Positions 445 to 6,827 of a stretch of 8,522 nt of DNA are shown piece by piece. The notes under the pieces were generated by a model. The model had not been told where the DNA came from and ran no database searches. It saw nothing but the letters and a program-made list of their open reading frames with translations. Source of the stretch: Clostridia bacterium (GTDB lineage: Bacteria > Bacillota_A > Clostridia > Christensenellales > Aristaeellaceae); NCBI GenBank assembly GCA_017412025.1, contig JAFQOY010000063.1, positions 1 to 8,522 on the forward strand. The letters are read 5' to 3'. Positions within the stretch are counted from its first letter, which is position 1. Every line of letters begins with the position of its first letter. Position numbers and translations under genes: made by a program.

Positions 445-951
445 ATGTTGATGAAAAAGAAAGTGGCCATCATCATGGGCAGCGTCAGCGATCTGCCCGT
501 TGTGGAGAAGGCCATCAAGACCCTGAAGGAATTTGGCGTGCCGCATGAGGTGCACGTCTATTCCGCGCACCGTACGCCGGAGGAGGCGCACGCCTTTTCT
601 TCCTCTGCGCGCGAAAACGGCTTTGGCGTGATCATTGCCGCCGCGGGTATGGCCGCGCATCTGGCTGGCAGCCTTGCCGCCAACACGACCCTGCCGGTCA
701 TCGGTATTCCGATGAAGTCCACTGCCTTTGCAAACGGTATTGACGCCCTGCTTTCCACCGTTCAGATGCCCTCCGGTATTCCGGTTGCCACGGTTGCGGT
801 GGATGGAGCTGTCAATGCCGCTTTGTTGTCTATCGAGATTCTTGCCGTCAGCGACGGAGAACTCGCGGAAAAGCTTGCGGCAAAGCGCGCGGCGGACACG
901 AAGAAAGTGCTGGCCGCCAACGCCGAAGCCGAGGCAAAGTACAACTGCTGA
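445..951 (+). CDS. purE: N5-carboxyaminoimidazole ribonucleotide mutase, class I PurE
   Basis: PurE moves the carboxyl group of N5-CAIR to make CAIR, the substrate of PurC encoded next. The 168-residue length is typical of bacterial PurE. Visible motifs are the N-terminal loop MGSVSD (11-16), SAHRTP (40-45), whose His42 matches the catalytic histidine of E. coli PurE, and GMAAHLAG (68-75), the class I counterpart of [21 protein letters not shown] follows at 107-119. The AHRTP and AAHL motifs argue against class II (AIR carboxylase) PurE. The start at 445 sits 5 nt after GGAGG (435-439). Starting at the second Met, 451, would leave 11 nt and give 166 residues. The frame is open upstream to 256, but the promoter and leader occupy that part. 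No purK is adjacent, so N5-CAIR must come from a gene elsewhere or the enzyme must depend on high CO2. Confidence 0.95.
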
Positions 952-1013: not shown

Positions 1014-1703
1014 ATGGAAAACCTCAAGCTCGTATATACCGGCAAGACCAAGAACGTCTATGCGCTTGACAACGGCAACTACCTCCTCAAGTTCAAGGAC
1101 GACTGCACCGGCAAGGACGGCGTGTTCGATCCGGGCGAGAATTCCGTCGGCCTGACCATCGAGGGCGTGGGCGACGTCAACCTGCGCATGTCCATCTACT
1201 ATTTTGAGAAGATCAACGCTGCGGGCATCGCGACCCACTACGTGAGCGCCGACCTCGCCAACACCACCATGGAAGTGCTGCCGGCCAAGCCGTTTGGCAA
1301 GGGCCTTGAGGTCATCTGCCGCCATAAGGCCGTGGGCTCCTTCCTGCGCCGCTACCGCGATTATATCGAAGAGGGCGCGGATCTGCCGGCCTATGTCGAG
1401 ATGACCTTCAAGAACGACGCGCTGGGCGATCCGCTGGTCACCAAGGACGGCCTCGTTGCGTTGGGCGTCATGACCGACAAGCAGTATGACGATATGAAGG
1501 AAATGACCCAGAAGATCACCGGCATCATCGCGGACGATCTCAAGGAGAAGGGCATGGTCCTCTACGATATCAAGTTTGAGTACGGCTATGACAAGGACGG
1601 CAACGTTATCCTGATCGATGAGATTGCCTCCGGCAACATGCGCGTCTATAAGGATGGAAAGTACATCGATCCGATGACCCTTTCCAAGCTGTTCTTCGCT
1701 TAA
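1014..1703 (+). CDS. purC: SAICAR synthetase (phosphoribosylaminoimidazole-succinocarboxamide synthase), short variant
   Basis: PurC joins CAIR and aspartate using ATP to form SAICAR. The 229-residue protein is slightly shorter than usual (about 235-240). Family features are YTGKTKNVY (8-16) in the ATP-binding N-terminal part, [11 protein letters not shown] (99-109) matching the first family signature, and LYDIKFEYG (183-191) matching the second. After that it departs from the common form: where E. coli-type enzymes have DE-[FI]-SPD followed by RLWD, this one has [11 protein letters not shown] (202-212) and soon ends at LFFA. This looks like a distinct clostridial subfamily and not a damaged gene, since the reading frame and core are intact. 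AGGAG at 1001-1005 is 8 nt before the ATG. It follows purE by 62 nt in the order expected for consecutive pathway steps, with purB, needed next, absent from the window. Confidence 0.95.
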
Positions 1704-1746: not shown

Positions 1747-1778
1747 CTACTTCAAAACCCGCAGGAGGATGTTACTGT

Positions 1779-3203
1779 ATGGGCGGTTTTTTCGGGGTTA
1801 CATCCCGCAGGAACTGTATTCTGGATGTTTTTTTCGGCACGGATTATCACTCTCATCTGGGCACGCGCCGCGGCGGCAAGGCCGCCTATGATCCCGAAGT
1901 CGGGCTTCAGCGCGAGATCCACAACATTGAGAATTCTCCGTTCCGCACCAAGTTTGAACATATTCTCGATCATATGACGGGCACGGCGGCCATCGGCTGC
2001 ATCAGCGACAGCGATCCGCAGCCGCTGCTGATCCGCTCCAATCTGGGTACCTACGCGATTTCCACCATCGGCAGGATCAACAACGCGGATGCGCTGATTG
2101 ATCAGTATCTCGCCTTCAGCGGCGGCCACTTTGACGCCATGACCGGAGGCAGGATCAACAGCAACGAGCTCATCGCTGCGCTGATCAACCAGAAGAGCAG
2201 CTTTGCCGACGGTATCCGCTTTGCGCAGAGCGTCATCGACGGCACGGCGTCCATTCTCATTCTCCGGGATAACGGCCATCTGATTGCCGCGCGCGACAGG
2301 CTGGGCCGCATTCCGGTTGTGCTGGGGAAGGATGAAGAGGGCCACTGTGTGAGCTTTGAGTCCTTTGCCGGCATGAAGCTCGGCTACGAGTATGTGCGCG
2401 AGCTGGGCCCGGGCGAGGTCGTGGAGATCACGCCGCAGGAGATCGTGCAGCTTCAGGCGCCCGGAAAGGAAATGAAGATCTGCGCGTTCCTCTGGTCCTA
2501 TTTCGGCTATCCGACGTCCACGTATGAGGGCTCCAACGTCGAGGTCATGCGCTGCAGGAACGGCGAAATCATGGCGGAGAACGACAGGAAAAAGGGCCTT
2601 GCGCTGGATATTGACTATGTCGGCGGCGTGCCGGATTCGGGCACGCCCCACGCGATCGGCTATGCGAACATGTTCGGCAAGCCGTTTGCGCGTCCGTTCA
2701 TCAAATATACGCCGACCTGGCCGCGCAGCTTCATGCCGGCGACCCAGCGCGAAAGGAACATGGTCGCCAAGATGAAGCAGATTCCCGTTCATGAGCTGAT
2801 TCAGGACAAGAAGCTTCTGTTTGTGGATGACAGCATCGTCCGCGGCACGCAGCTGCGCGAGACGGTCGAGTTCCTGTATGAAAACGGCGCGAAGGAAGTG
2901 CATATCCGCTCTGCCTGTCCGCCGATTCTCTACAGCTGCAAGTACCTCAACTTCTCCCGCTCGACCTCTCCGATGGATCTGCTGGCGCGCGCCACGATCA
3001 TGGAGCTGGAGGGCGAAGAGGGCTTTGAGCACATGGACGAGTACTGCGACGGCGAGAGCGAGCGCGGACGCAGGATGCGCGAGGCCATCTGCCAGAAGAT
3101 GCACTTTGCCTCGCTTGAGTACCAGTCTCTGGAAGGCATCTACAAGGCGATCGGCCTTGAACCCTGCAAGGTTTGCACATACTGCTGGAACGGAAAAGAA
3201 TAA
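1779..3203 (+). CDS. purF: Amidophosphoribosyltransferase-like protein (PurF family) with degenerate glutaminase domain
   Basis: PurF makes phosphoribosylamine from PRPP with nitrogen from glutamine, the first committed step. This 474-residue protein starts MGGFFG, 10 nt after AGGAGG (1763-1768). Aligned by eye to Bacillus PurF (CGVFG), the catalytic N-terminal cysteine is glycine and there is no propeptide. The glutamine-site motif HVRY is replaced by CISD (74-77), HNG by TIG (96-98), and the SSD motif by INS. The phosphoribosyltransferase half looks sound: VPDSG, then the PRPP loop VDDSIVRGT (349-357). Cys235, Cys387, Cys466 and Cys469 align with the four [4Fe-4S] ligands of Bacillus PurF. 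Likely function is therefore ammonia-dependent or partner-dependent phosphoribosylamine synthesis; an alternative is a paralogue with another role while a normal PurF lies elsewhere. Its place in the operon, 15 nt before purM, favours a purine role. Starting at the GTG at 1725 would put the start in the hairpin loop with no ribosome binding site. Confidence 0.85.
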   Translation: MGGFFGVTSRRNCILDVFFGTDYHSHLGTRRGGKAAYDPEVGLQREIHNIENSPFRTKFEHILDHMTGTAAIGCISDSDPQPLLIRSNLGTYAISTIGRINNADALIDQYLAFSGGHFDAMTGGRINSNELIAALINQKSSFADGIRFAQSVIDGTASILILRDNGHLIAARDRLGRIPVVLGKDEEGHCVSFESFAGMKLGYEYVRELGPGEVVEITPQEIVQLQAPGKEMKICAFLWSYFGYPTSTYEGSNVEVMRCRNGEIMAENDRKKGLALDIDYVGGVPDSGTPHAIGYANMFGKPFARPFIKYTPTWPRSFMPATQRERNMVAKMKQIPVHELIQDKKLLFVDDSIVRGTQLRETVEFLYENGAKEVHIRSACPPILYSCKYLNFSRSTSPMDLLARATIMELEGEEGFEHMDEYCDGESERGRRMREAICQKMHFASLEYQSLEGIYKAIGLEPCKVCTYCWNGKE

Positions 3204-3218
3204 GAGAGGGATACGACA

Positions 3219-4271
3219 ATGGCACACGAGAATTCGAGCTCTGCGTCCTACGCCGCCGCCGGCGTGGACATCACTGCGGGTTACCGCGCTGTCGAACTGA
3301 TGAAAAAGCATGTGGCCCGGACGAGAAACGAGGGCTGTCTGGACGACGTCGGCGGTTTCGGCGGCTGCTTCGGCCTGCCGGTCGCCGGCATGGAAGAGCC
3401 CGTTCTGGTCTCCGGCACGGACGGCTGCGGCACCAAGGTGAAGATGGCCATCCTGATGGACAAGCATGACACCATCGGCATCGACGCCGTCGCCATGTGC
3501 GTCAACGACATCATCTGCGTGGGCGCGAAGCCGCTGTTCTTCCTGGATTATATCGCGTGCGGCAAGAACGTGCCCGAGAAGATCGCGGCCATCGTCGCCG
3601 GCGTGGCCGAGGGCTGCGTGCAGTCCGGCGCGGCGCTCATCGGCGGAGAAACCGCCGAGCATCCCGGCATGATGCCCGTGGAAGATTACGATCTGGCCGG
3701 CTTTGCCGTGGGTATCGTGGATAAGAAGAAGATCCTTGACAACACCCGCATGGCTGCGGGCGATGTGGTCATCGCGCTGCCCTCTACCGGCATCCACAGC
3801 AACGGCTTCTCCCTGTGCCGCAAGGTGTTTGATATCGACAACAACAACCCGGAGCTCTATGTTCCGCGTGAGGAGCTGGGCGGAAAGACCATCGCCGAGA
3901 CGCTGCTGACCCCGACGAAGATCTACGTCAAGCCCGTTCTGGCTCTGCTTGAAAAGGTGGACGTCAAGGGCATCAGCCATATCACCGGCGGCGGCTTCTA
4001 TGAGAACATTCCGCGCTCCATCCCGGACGGCCTGTGCGCGAAGATCGACAAGAGCGCCGTGAAGGTGCTGCCGATCTTTGATATGATCGCCAAGTGGGGC
4101 AATATCCCGGAGCGCGACATGTTCAACACCTATAACATGGGCGTGGGCATGAGCGTGGTGGTTCCGGCGGCGCAGGTCGAAGAGTCCCTTTCCATCCTCC
4201 GGGACAACGGCATTGACGCCTATGTGATCGGCGAGATCGTGAAGGGCGAAGAAAAGGTGATCCTCGGATGA
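3219..4271 (+). CDS. purM: AIR synthetase (phosphoribosylformylglycinamidine cyclo-ligase)
   Basis: PurM closes the imidazole ring: FGAM plus ATP gives AIR. At 350 residues it has normal length. In order it shows YAAAGVDI (11-18), SGTDGCGTK (65-73), the [20 protein letters not shown] stretch (94-113), [10 protein letters not shown] (142-151), GIHSNGFS (191-198), [13 protein letters not shown] (254-266) and [10 protein letters not shown] (302-311), which are the expected N-terminal ATP-binding and C-terminal AIRS-family signatures. A purine-rich GAGAGGG (3204-3210) lies 8 nt before the ATG. The gene starts 15 nt after purF, and its stop codon overlaps the purN start by 4 nt (ATGA), which suggests translational coupling. 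The enzyme that supplies its substrate, PurL, is not encoded in this window. Nothing looks broken. Confidence 0.97.
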
Positions 4272-4908: not shown

Positions 4909-5622
4909 ATGAACGTTTACGAGATCAAGACCATGGCGGAGCGCCTTGAGGGCAACCGCTATCCGGGCCGCGGCATCGTCATCGGCGTCACGCCGGACGG
5001 AAAGAAGGCCGCTGTCGCCTATTTCATCATGGGCCGCAGCGTCAACAGCCGCAACCGCGTGTTCTGCCTGGAAAAGGACGGCATCCGCACGCAGGCGCAC
5101 GATCCCTCCAAGATGGTCGATCCGCACCTGATCATCTATCATCCGGTCCGCGAGGCCGGCTGCGGCCTGATCGTCACCAACGGCGACCAGACCGACACCA
5201 TCTGGACGTATCTCGCCCGGGGCGAGAGCTGGGAAGCCGCGCTGCGTACCCGCCAGTTTGAGGACGACGGCCCCAACTGGACGCCGCGTATCTCCGGCAT
5301 CCAGGCCGGCGACGGCAGCTATAAGATGTCCATTCTAAAGGCAGCCGACGCGGAAGGCTCTGCCTGCGCCCGCTTCTTCTACGAGTATCCGGCGATCGCG
5401 GGCCTTGGCCACTTCCTGCATACCTATGTCTGCGACGGCAATCCGGTGATTCCGACCTTCCAGGGCGAGCCGGAGCGCGTGGCGATGAAGGACGATATCG
5501 ACGCGTTCACCGATGAAATCTGGAATGCGCTGGATGCGGAAAACAAGATTTCCCTCTATGTCCGCTATACCGATCTTGAGACCGGCGCGGTCGATACCCG
5601 TCTGATCAACAAGAACGCCTGA
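4909..5622 (+). CDS. purO: IMP cyclohydrolase, PurO-like (archaeal type)
   Basis: It is predicted to close the second purine ring, FAICAR to IMP, the last step of the pathway. The 237-residue sequence resembles the PurO family first described in methanogens: YPGRGIVIG (18-26), MGRSVNSRNR (41-50, like the archaeal SSRSFPNR), TNGDQTD (90-96, like SNGxxTD) and NWTPRISGI (123-131, like NTPRI). It is not homologous to the cyclohydrolase domain of bifunctional PurH; the archaeal enzyme has an Ntn-hydrolase-like fold. At about 200 residues archaeal PurO is shorter; the extra part here includes GLGHFLHTY (165-173) and the C-terminal end. It lies 2 nt after purN and 20 nt before a single-domain AICAR transformylase that lacks a cyclohydrolase domain, so the two complete each other. 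AAGGAG (4893-4898) is 10 nt before the ATG. The function rests on motif memory and context, both strong. Confidence 0.85.
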   Translation: MNVYEIKTMAERLEGNRYPGRGIVIGVTPDGKKAAVAYFIMGRSVNSRNRVFCLEKDGIRTQAHDPSKMVDPHLIIYHPVREAGCGLIVTNGDQTDTIWTYLARGESWEAALRTRQFEDDGPNWTPRISGIQAGDGSYKMSILKAADAEGSACARFFYEYPAIAGLGHFLHTYVCDGNPVIPTFQGEPERVAMKDDIDAFTDEIWNALDAENKISLYVRYTDLETGAVDTRLINKNA

Positions 5623-5642
5623 GATGATAAGGAGAAAAGCAG

Positions 5643-6827
5643 ATGAAAGAGTTTGAACTGAAGTACGGCTGCAACCCGAATCAGAAGCCGTCCAGGATCT
5701 ACATGCATGACGGCAGCGAGCTGCCCATCACCATCCTCAACGGCCGTCCGGGCTATATCAACTTCCTGGATGCGCTCAACTCCTGGCAGCTGGTGAAGGA
5801 ACTGAAGGAAGCCACCGGTCTTTGCGCTGTGACCTCCTTCAAGCACGTCTCTCCGACCTCCGCCGCCGTGGGCAAGGTGCTGCCGATGAACCTGAAGAAG
5901 GCCTGCTTCTGTGACGACGTCGAGGGCCTTGACGATTCCCTGCTGGCCTGCGCCTATGCGCGTGCCCGCGGCACGGACCGCATGTGCTCCTTCGGCGACT
6001 GGGTTGCGCTCTCCGACGTGTGCGACGTGACCACGGCGAAGCTCATCTCCCGCGAGGTCAGCGACGGCGTGATCGCGCCGGGCTACGAGCCGGAAGCGCT
6101 GGAGATCCTGAAGAAGAAGCGCAAGGGCGGCTACAACGTCGTCATGATCGACGAAAACTATGTGCCCGCCGCGCAGGAGACCAAGCAGGTCTTCGGCATC
6201 ACCTTTGAGCAGGGCCGCAACAACTTCAAGATCGATGAGGAGCTCCTCTTAAACATCGTGACGGAGAATAAGGAGCTGCCGCAGGAAGCGAAGATCGATC
6301 TGATCGTTGCGCTCATCACGCTCAAGTATACCCAGTCCAATTCCGTCTGCTATGCGTACGACGGTCAGGCCATCGGCGTGGGCGCGGGCCAGCAGTCCCG
6401 TATCCACTGCACCCGTCTGGCCGGCACCAAGGCCGATACCTGGTTCCTGCGCCAGCATCCCAAGACGCTCGCGCTGCCGTTCAGGCCGGGCATGGGCCGC
6501 GCCGACCGCGACAACGTGATCGACTCCTACATCAACGGCAACGAAGAGGACGTCTGCGCCGACGGCATCTGGCAGAACTACTTCACCGCCTGCCCGGATC
6601 GCCTGACGCAGGAGGACAAGGATGCGTTCCTGGCCAGCCAGGAGAACGTGGCGCTTGGCTCCGACGCGTTCTTCCCCTTCTCCGACAACATCAAGCGCGC
6701 GGCGAAGTCCGGCGTCAAGTATATCGCCGAGCCGGGCGGATCCATCCGCGATGACGCCGTCATCGACGAGTGCAACAAGAACGGCATGGTCATGGCCTTC
6801 ACCGGCATGCGCCTGTTCCATCACTAA
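5643..6827 (+). CDS. purH: Stand-alone AICAR transformylase (PurH C-terminal domain homologue)
   Basis: It transfers a formyl group from 10-formyl-THF to AICAR, making FAICAR. The 394-residue protein matches only the transformylase part of bifunctional PurH (about 510-530 residues); the N-terminal MGS-like cyclohydrolase domain is absent. Motifs include LKYGCNPNQK (6-15), the catalytic Lys67-His68 pair in FKHVSPTS (PurH has KHANPCG), VIAPGYEPEALEIL (143-156), LKYTQSNSV (227-235), GAGQQSR (247-253), SDAFFPFSD (340-348), PGGSIRDD (364-371) and FTGMRLFHH at the end. Extra length comes partly from an insertion at roughly 270-335, before SDAFFPF. AAGGAG (5629-5634) is 8 nt before the ATG. The upstream purO supplies the cyclohydrolase, so order (cyclohydrolase, then transformylase) mirrors the PurH fusion. 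It should not be called bifunctional. Confidence 0.93.
   Translation: MKEFELKYGCNPNQKPSRIYMHDGSELPITILNGRPGYINFLDALNSWQLVKELKEATGLCAVTSFKHVSPTSAAVGKVLPMNLKKACFCDDVEGLDDSLLACAYARARGTDRMCSFGDWVALSDVCDVTTAKLISREVSDGVIAPGYEPEALEILKKKRKGGYNVVMIDENYVPAAQETKQVFGITFEQGRNNFKIDEELLLNIVTENKELPQEAKIDLIVALITLKYTQSNSVCYAYDGQAIGVGAGQQSRIHCTRLAGTKADTWFLRQHPKTLALPFRPGMGRADRDNVIDSYINGNEEDVCADGIWQNYFTACPDRLTQEDKDAFLASQENVALGSDAFFPFSDNIKRAAKSGVKYIAEPGGSIRDDAVIDECNKNGMVMAFTGMRLFHH

What the first reader, a model, noticed from the sequence alone, without database searches (positions are those of the whole stretch)
1779..2160. The only PurF in the operon lacks the glutaminase nucleophile and glutamine-site residues
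Where active PurF has Cys1 (CGxxG), this protein has Gly2 in MGGFFG. The HVRY, HNG and SSD motifs that hold glutamine are also replaced (CISD, TIG, INS), while the PRPP loop VDDSIVRGT is intact. Established knowledge: E. coli PurF altered at Cys1 loses glutamine-dependent but keeps ammonia-dependent activity. Inference: the enzyme uses free ammonia, receives it from a separate glutaminase, or has a different role beside a normal PurF encoded elsewhere. I believe similar GGFFG proteins occur in other Clostridia and Bacteroidetes, so the family is probably known in databases, but its function looks open.
Basis: partly seen in the sequence, partly recalled or inferred. Interest (0 to 1): 0.7.

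Follow-up and report, generated by a model that had tools for sequence, protein, structure and literature searches.

The report
Ammonia-fed PurF replacing glutamine-fed PurF
The enzyme that starts purine synthesis in this bacterium has lost the part that takes nitrogen from glutamine, and related genomes suggest that it runs on free ammonia, while a normal copy, where one is kept, often sits among genes for nitrogen supply.

Summary
Confirmed. The 474-aa PurF-type protein at 1779-3203 has Gly where PurF has its catalytic Cys and lacks the glutamine-site motifs. The PRPP loop and four cysteines shared with canonical PurF are intact. It has the PurF fold, both halves are under purifying selection, and 0 of 142 distinct family members read have the Cys.

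Among close relatives the gene holds purF's operon slot (purM next downstream in 33 of 40 loci). Where both types occur there, the canonical gene is mostly near nitrogen-assimilation or glutamine-using genes (27 of 33), rarely in the pur operon (1 of 33). Of 48 genomes with only this type, 4 have an ammonium transporter and 7 glutamate synthase, against 28 and 31 of 32 with both. Many carriers also have CarB without CarA, five times directly upstream of this gene.

Against: in a phylum-wide sample the gene is in a pur operon in 3 of 24 carriers, and 23 of 24 have a second PurF match. No biochemistry exists here.

Best reading: an ammonia-dependent PRPP aminotransferase. Closest precedent: crenarchaeal PurF'.

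The parts
445..951 (+). purE (AIR carboxylase / N5-CAIR mutase)
   Evidence: PF00731 2e-59, TIGR01162 188.6 bits over cut-off
1014..1703 (+). purC, a divergent SAICAR synthetase
   Evidence: PF01259 4e-40; TIGR00081 119 bits, below its 190 cut-off
1763..1768 (+). Shine-Dalgarno-like AGGAGG before ATG 1779
   Evidence: sequence read
1779..3203 (+). GGFFG-type PurF, 474 aa: PRPP aminotransferase without working glutaminase
1782..1784 (+). codon of Gly2, aligned with the catalytic Cys1 of PurF
1998..2009 (+). CISD, where canonical PurF has HVRYxT (Arg/Tyr columns are gaps)
2064..2072 (+). TIG in place of HNG
2154..2162 (+). INS in place of the SSD motif (Asp lost)
2481..2483 (+). Cys235; with Cys387 (2937-2939), Cys466 (3174-3176) and Cys469 (3183-3185) aligned with four Cys invariant in canonical PurF
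   Evidence: 100% in both groups; that they are the [4Fe-4S] ligands of B. subtilis PurF is recalled
2631..2642 (+). PDSG, conserved motif of the phosphoribosyltransferase half
2703..2732 (+). KYTPTWPRSF: flexible-loop region, family-specific where canonical has K-N-(K/R)-Y-(I/V)-G-R-T-F; the loop's role in PRPP binding is recalled
   Evidence: low pLDDT 306-320 in the model
2823..2849 (+). VDDSIVRGT, PRPP-binding loop, intact
3219..4271 (+). purM
   Evidence: TIGR00878 425 bits
4268..4906 (+). purN
   Evidence: TIGR00639 198 bits
4909..5622 (+). PurO-type IMP cyclohydrolase
   Evidence: PF07826 1.3e-58
5643..6827 (+). stand-alone AICAR formyltransferase
   Evidence: NF005492 665 bits
6848..8134 (+). 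purD, which uses the phosphoribosylamine that PurF makes
   Evidence: TIGR00877 514 bits

Best explanation
The protein is a PRPP aminotransferase that makes 5-phosphoribosylamine for PurD from PRPP and free ammonia. Its N-terminal Ntn domain keeps the fold and probably serves structure or regulation, but cannot hydrolyse glutamine. In the window's close relatives it has replaced glutamine-dependent PurF in the pur operon. Lineages that also live at low ammonia keep a canonical PurF, often among nitrogen-assimilation genes, much as cells pair glutamate dehydrogenase with GS/GOGAT; elsewhere in the phylum it is an extra isozyme. Shown: loss of the site, intact PRPP half, fold, operon slot, clade, genomic associations. 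Inferred: ammonia as donor, the high/low-ammonia division of labour, the role of the dead domain.
For: Cys lost in 142 of 142 distinct readable members, while PRPP loop, PDSG and four cysteines are conserved. Purifying selection on both halves, dN/dS 0.05-0.15 and 0.03-0.10 against 8 relatives. In the family of relative G012, purM is next downstream in 33 of 40 loci of this type (18 of 22, 15 of 18); in canonical-only genomes canonical PurF has it in 12 of 20. In genomes with both types the canonical gene lies near nitrogen or glutamine-using genes in 27 of 33 (23 of 33 if only Amt, GOGAT, GlnA and AsnB count) and in a pur cluster in 1 of 33. Amt in 28 of 32 genomes with both types but 4 of 48 with only this type; GOGAT 31 of 32 and 7 of 48; purD control 32 of 32 and 45 of 48. 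On a tree, independent pairs: GOGAT follows canonical PurF 8.9 to 0.0 (median p 0.004), Amt 7.9 to 1.0 (median p 0.039). G128 (4.31 Mb, one contig) has this type alone, a full pur operon, PurL and PurD, and no Amt or GOGAT found. PurL keeps its catalytic Cys motif in 29 of 30, so the loss is not general. CarB without CarA in many carriers, five times directly upstream of this gene.
Against: No biochemistry. In the phylum-wide draw the gene lies in a pur cluster in only 3 of 24 carrier genomes (L163, L167, L234), and 23 of 24 have a second PurF match; of eight canonical loci read from that draw (besides the tandem L234), five are in pur operons and three near Amt. So replacement is shown only near the window. 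Some genomes with only this type have Amt (4 of 48) or GOGAT (7 of 48). In 6 of 20 canonical-only genomes the canonical gene also lies near N genes. Most genomes are MAGs, and linked genes can be missing together, though in 12 of 28 genomes with Amt it lies on another contig than canonical purF (hand count). G128 keeps CarA-CarB. How well the enzyme would work at cellular NH3 is unknown.
Confidence: 0.72

Rival explanations
1. The synthase half receives ammonia from a separate glutaminase protein, so the system is still glutamine-driven in trans.
For: Other amidotransferases use separate glutaminase subunits, such as PurQ or CarA (PMC3261824 passages; PMC6245113 passages).
Against: The window's operon genes include no recognised glutaminase, and the PurL of relatives is the large form with its own glutaminase. 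Lack of Amt and GOGAT in most genomes that have only this type points to ammonia. The dead domain still occupies the glutaminase position in the model.
Confidence: 0.09
2. It is not the PRPP aminotransferase but a regulator or another phosphoribosyltransferase, and canonical PurF carries the flux.
For: In a phylum-wide sample 23 of 24 carriers have a second PurF match, and the gene mostly stands outside the pur operon (21 of 24 genomes). Tandem canonical plus GGFFG genes occur in L105 and L234.
Against: Many genomes near the window have no other PurF over the cut-off: 36 of 50 (2 more have fragments) and 20 of the 42 carriers counted, including one-contig G128; purD is present in 45 of 48 such genomes tested. 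There it holds purF's slot next to purM.
Confidence: 0.13
3. It uses a nitrogen donor other than ammonia or glutamine, bound in a remodelled N-terminal pocket (DYHSHLGT(R/K)R motif).
For: 64 of 230 N-terminal columns are at least 97% conserved, many of them specific to this family.
Against: The genomic associations point to ammonia metabolism; conserved residues can also serve structure, the oligomer or allostery.
Confidence: 0.05

Closest known systems
Canonical glutamine PRPP amidotransferase PurF (EC 2.4.2.14, TIGR01134), B. subtilis/Clostridia type
   Different: No Cys1, no HVRYxT, HNG or SSD; different flexible loop; scores 166.6 against a cut-off of 350. Canonical neighbours have residues (such as HEE) before the Cys, here only Met precedes Gly2
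Crenarchaeal PurF' (Brown et al. 2011, PMC3261824; section 6 read)
   Same: PurF paralogue without the N-terminal Cys, near purine genes; the authors propose an ammonia-dependent enzyme, untested there
   Different: Archaeal; the Crenarchaeota studied also carry a Cys-bearing PurF. Whether the two families share an origin was not tested. Here many close relatives have no canonical copy
CarB without CarA (the large subunit makes carbamoyl phosphate from ammonia; passages of PMC6245113)
   Same: An amidotransferase whose synthase part is kept and whose glutaminase part is missing; co-occurs with this PurF
   Different: Class I glutaminase subunit absent as a gene, rather than a dead fused Ntn domain

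Membership tests
PurF, TIGR01134 equivalog | score over the curated cut-off of 350 bits | tested here: not met
   166.6 bits
PurF, TIGR01134 equivalog | N-terminal Cys nucleophile | tested here: not met
   Gly2; 0 of 142 distinct readable members have Cys
PurF, TIGR01134 equivalog | glutamine-site motifs HVRYxT, HNG, SSD | tested here: not met
   gap, TIG, INS
PurF, TIGR01134 equivalog | PRPP-binding loop DDSIVRG and PDSG | tested here: met
   conserved in both groups
PurF, TIGR01134 equivalog | two-domain GPATase fold | tested here: met
PurF, TIGR01134 equivalog | glutamine-dependent phosphoribosylamine synthesis | not testable with these tools
   needs an enzyme assay
PurF' (crenarchaeal) | PurF-like, no N-terminal Cys, near purine genes | tested here: met
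   for the window and close relatives; definition from PMC3261824
PurF' (crenarchaeal) | same clade as the archaeal proteins | not tested
   no archaeal sequence was compared
GGFFG-type PurF (as described here) | one clade apart from canonical PurF, with a score gap | tested here: met
   46 against 62 rows, one change on the tree, support 100; 639-951 bits against at most 206

The most novel reading that the evidence does not exclude
Many gut-type Clostridia start both purine and pyrimidine synthesis on free ammonia: PurF with a dead glutaminase domain, plus CarB without CarA (heading the pyr genes, or directly upstream of this purF). Glutamine-using counterparts (PurF, CarA-CarB, PyrG, GlmS, AsnB) are grouped near Amt, GlnA and GOGAT for low ammonia, and lineages that live permanently at high ammonia have lost that set. 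The ammonia-fed enzymes would be catalytically adapted to low NH3, unlike E. coli Cys1 mutants.
Probability: 0.48. Interest if true: 0.85.

Novelty: new variant of a known kind. Interest (0 to 1): 0.73.

Why it matters
PurF is a textbook example of glutamine-derived ammonia channelled inside one enzyme. A family that keeps the synthase half but has dropped glutamine use would be a natural experiment on why channelling exists and what ammonia level makes it dispensable. It would tie ammonia in the gut to nucleotide synthesis. The named hits are called plain amidophosphoribosyltransferase, so metabolic models may assign the wrong nitrogen donor. Glutamine analogues that act on PurF's glutamine site should fail on this enzyme (inference).

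Tried and rejected
A longer N-terminus from GTG 1725 (with Cys residues just before Met) was considered and rejected: the SD lies directly before ATG 1779 and relatives start at M-GGFFG. Rfam gave no hit at gathering thresholds on the window and five context loci, so no riboswitch evidence. The idea that all glutamine amidotransferases had decayed was rejected: PurL keeps the GxCNG motif in 29 of 30 loci; the one miss, L214, is a match that ends at profile position 1085 of 1239. Bacteroidota occurrence could not be tested; a second protein search from a divergent member named Lachnospiraceae, Firmicutes, Clostridia and Eubacterium among the few listed rows with names. I first took the 639-668-bit proteins as one subclade; the tree puts one of them, L216, elsewhere, so I do not treat them as one.

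Literature: ten searches listed no paper whose title or abstract describes this bacterial family; the library holds open-licence PMC papers only, so it may be in print elsewhere. I read section 6 and passages of PMC3261824 and passages of PMC6245113; other papers only as search listings.

Limits of counts: 50 of the 80 loci's genomes were searched. Operon counts use the loci fetched from the draw (40 of this type; 18 of the 20 genomes with only this type, and all 22 with both), plus, for canonical genes, the 12 canonical genomes; the other L001-L080 loci were not scored for neighbours. In some searches, 80 of 87 intended genomes were used; seven (G106, G024, G034, G046, G037, G036, G068) were dropped for the 80-handle limit. 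Classes (22 both, 20 only this type of which two are fragments, 42 canonical only, 17 neither) and CarA/CarB adjacency were tallied by hand from the tables; the match list is capped. GOGAT was counted at over 100 bits, because weaker PF01645 rows look like other flavoproteins. Of 42 canonical-only genomes, 20 were fetched for context and all 42 searched for Amt: 27 of 42 have it.

Full report
What is there. The window is a pur operon on the + strand: purE, purC, the PurF-type gene (1779-3203), purM, purN, a PurO-type IMP cyclohydrolase, a stand-alone AICAR formyltransferase and purD, followed by the start of what reads by eye like guaB. The PurF-type gene starts at ATG 1779 with AGGAGG at 1763-1768 and codes for 474 aa. 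It scores 166.6 bits with TIGR01134, below the 350-bit cut-off. No whole genome is held for the window.

The observation. I aligned 116 sequences of this type, the window's included, with 53 canonical PurFs; two of the 116 are the same gene. Residue 2, Gly, sits on the catalytic Cys1 in all 116. Five further loci of the 80 were left out because they lacked the exact start motif: two Gly, two Ser, one truncated. A second set of 23 from other genomes had 16 Gly and 7 Ser. So 0 of 142 distinct readable proteins have Cys. Arg and Tyr of HVRY and the Thr after it are gaps in all 116; HN becomes mostly T/I/M followed by V/I; the Asp of the SSD motif is mostly Ser, Ala or Thr. By contrast DDSIVRG, PDSG and four cysteines (235, 387, 466, 469) are invariant or nearly so in both groups. 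The cysteines align with the Fe-S ligands of B. subtilis PurF as I recall them. PMC3261824 (section 6) states that E. coli PurF with Cys1 changed to Ala or Ser has no detectable glutamine activity but can still use ammonia.

Family and distribution. In 398 genomes drawn from the phylum of relative G012, 24 genomes carry 25 proteins scoring 639-951 bits; the next match is at 206 bits. In a 108-row tree the family (46 rows) is one side of one branch, support 100, which fits a single loss of the site. The listed hits that carry a name are called amidophosphoribosyltransferase.

Is there a second PurF? In 50 of the 80 nearest genomes searched, 12 also have canonical PurF over the cut-off, two have fragments of it, 36 have none. 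The nearest relatives of the window (88-92% identical) are split, so the window's own state cannot be told. In 101 genomes of G012's family I count by hand 22 with both types, 20 with only this type (two of these as fragments), 42 with only canonical and 17 with neither. G128, whose contig C1 is 4,308,696 bases, has only this type, with a complete set of pur-operon markers around it. Phylum-wide the picture differs: 23 of 24 carriers have a further match, G521 being the exception.

Place in the genome near the window (markers by tblastn over up to 20 kb per locus). This type has purM as the next marker downstream in 18 of 22 genomes with both types and 15 of 18 with only this type. In canonical-only genomes, canonical PurF has purM next in 12 of 20. 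In genomes with both, canonical PurF lies near at least one of Amt, GOGAT parts, GlnA, AsnB, PyrG, GlmS, CarB or NadE in 27 of 33 (23 of 33 for Amt, GOGAT, GlnA or AsnB alone), near at least three pur-operon markers in 1 of 33 (a tandem pair, L105), and near neither in five. So near the window the glutamine-free enzyme stands in purF's slot and the glutamine enzyme, where kept, is mostly with nitrogen genes. Against this: in 6 of 20 canonical-only genomes the canonical gene also lies near such genes.

Place in the genome elsewhere. Of the 24 carriers, the gene lies in a pur cluster in three: L163 (G116), L167 (G012) and L234 (G419, in tandem with canonical purF); in the other 21 it does not, though some contigs are short. 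Of eight canonical loci read from that draw besides L234, five are in pur operons (L235, L236, L237, L239, L242) and three near Amt (L238, L240, L241). There the protein would be a second isozyme, not a replacement.

Co-occurrence. Amt is found in 28 of 32 genomes with both types and 4 of 48 with only this type; GOGAT, counted at over 100 bits, in 31 of 32 and 7 of 48. The control purD is over its cut-off in 32 of 32 and 45 of 48. Fisher p is 3e-13, 2e-14 and 0.27. Canonical-only genomes have Amt in 27 of 42. On the protein tree, with 12 independent supported pairs, GOGAT goes with canonical PurF 8.9 times to 0.0 (median p 0.004) and Amt 7.9 to 1.0 (median p 0.039). Incomplete MAGs can lose linked genes together; by my hand count of contig names, Amt is on another contig than canonical purF in 12 of the 28, and G128, on one contig, lacks all three.

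CarB without CarA. In five loci of four genomes (L217, L218, L219, L223, L227) a carB lies directly upstream of this purF on the same strand, 31-91 bp away, with no carA beside it. Of 19 carriers searched, these four included, 18 have CarB and 16 of those have a copy not next to CarA (hand count). In a three-class comparison, of genomes with any CarB, a CarA-less copy occurs in 22 of 33 with only this type, 10 of 22 with both, and 1 of 16 canonical-only (hand count, some copies partial; Fisher p 6e-5 for the first against the last). In 20 fetched loci no CarA was found beside it, and in 15 of these pyrK follows. The large CPSase subunit makes carbamoyl phosphate from ammonia; the review adds that E. 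coli CPSase needs very high ammonia for this (PMC6245113 passages). This points the same way: the first step of pyrimidine synthesis has also shed its glutaminase in many carriers. G128 is an exception with a CarA-CarB pair.

Reading. The simplest account is an ammonia-dependent PRPP aminotransferase, the only PurF in organisms that live with plenty of ammonium, and an alternative to a glutamine-dependent isozyme in others. It works like PurF without its glutaminase, but fails the defining tests of the glutamine amidotransferase. PurL keeps its glutaminase Cys motif in 29 of 30 loci, so glutamine use is not lost in general.

Known or new. Cys-less PurF is not new as such: Brown et al. 2011 described crenarchaeal PurF' and proposed ammonia dependence, untested in that paper. 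Replacement of canonical PurF in a bacterial pur operon, the placing of the canonical gene with nitrogen genes, and the link with CarA-less CarB were not found in ten searches of an open-licence library (listed under Tried and rejected).

Noticed in passing
window 4909-6827: PurH is split: a PurO-type IMP cyclohydrolase (PF07826) followed by a stand-alone AICAR formyltransferase (NF005492); the same pair is seen in many related pur operons.
   Followed up: partly
window 1014-1703: Divergent PurC (TIGR00081 119 bits, cut-off 190); related operons carry either this or a canonical PurC, and L159 has both.
   Followed up: no
L217, L218, L219, L223, L227: carB without carA directly upstream of the GGFFG purF, same strand, 31-91 bp apart.
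   Followed up: yes
L249-L261, L263, L265: carB followed by pyrK (often with pyrE and pyrB) and no carA beside it.
   Followed up: partly
L105 and L234: Canonical purF and GGFFG purF in tandem inside one pur operon.
   Followed up: partly
G360 (L217, L218): One genome with two GGFFG purF genes, each behind its own CarA-less carB.
   Followed up: no
L103 (G038) around 4.1 kb: A short piece of canonical purF (126-aa open frame with EECGVFG) between carB and pyrG in a nitrogen cluster, in a genome where no full canonical PurF was found: decay or assembly error.
   Followed up: no
L003, L007, L215, L224, L226, L228, L229, L230, L233: Ser instead of Gly at the old Cys1 position.
   Followed up: no
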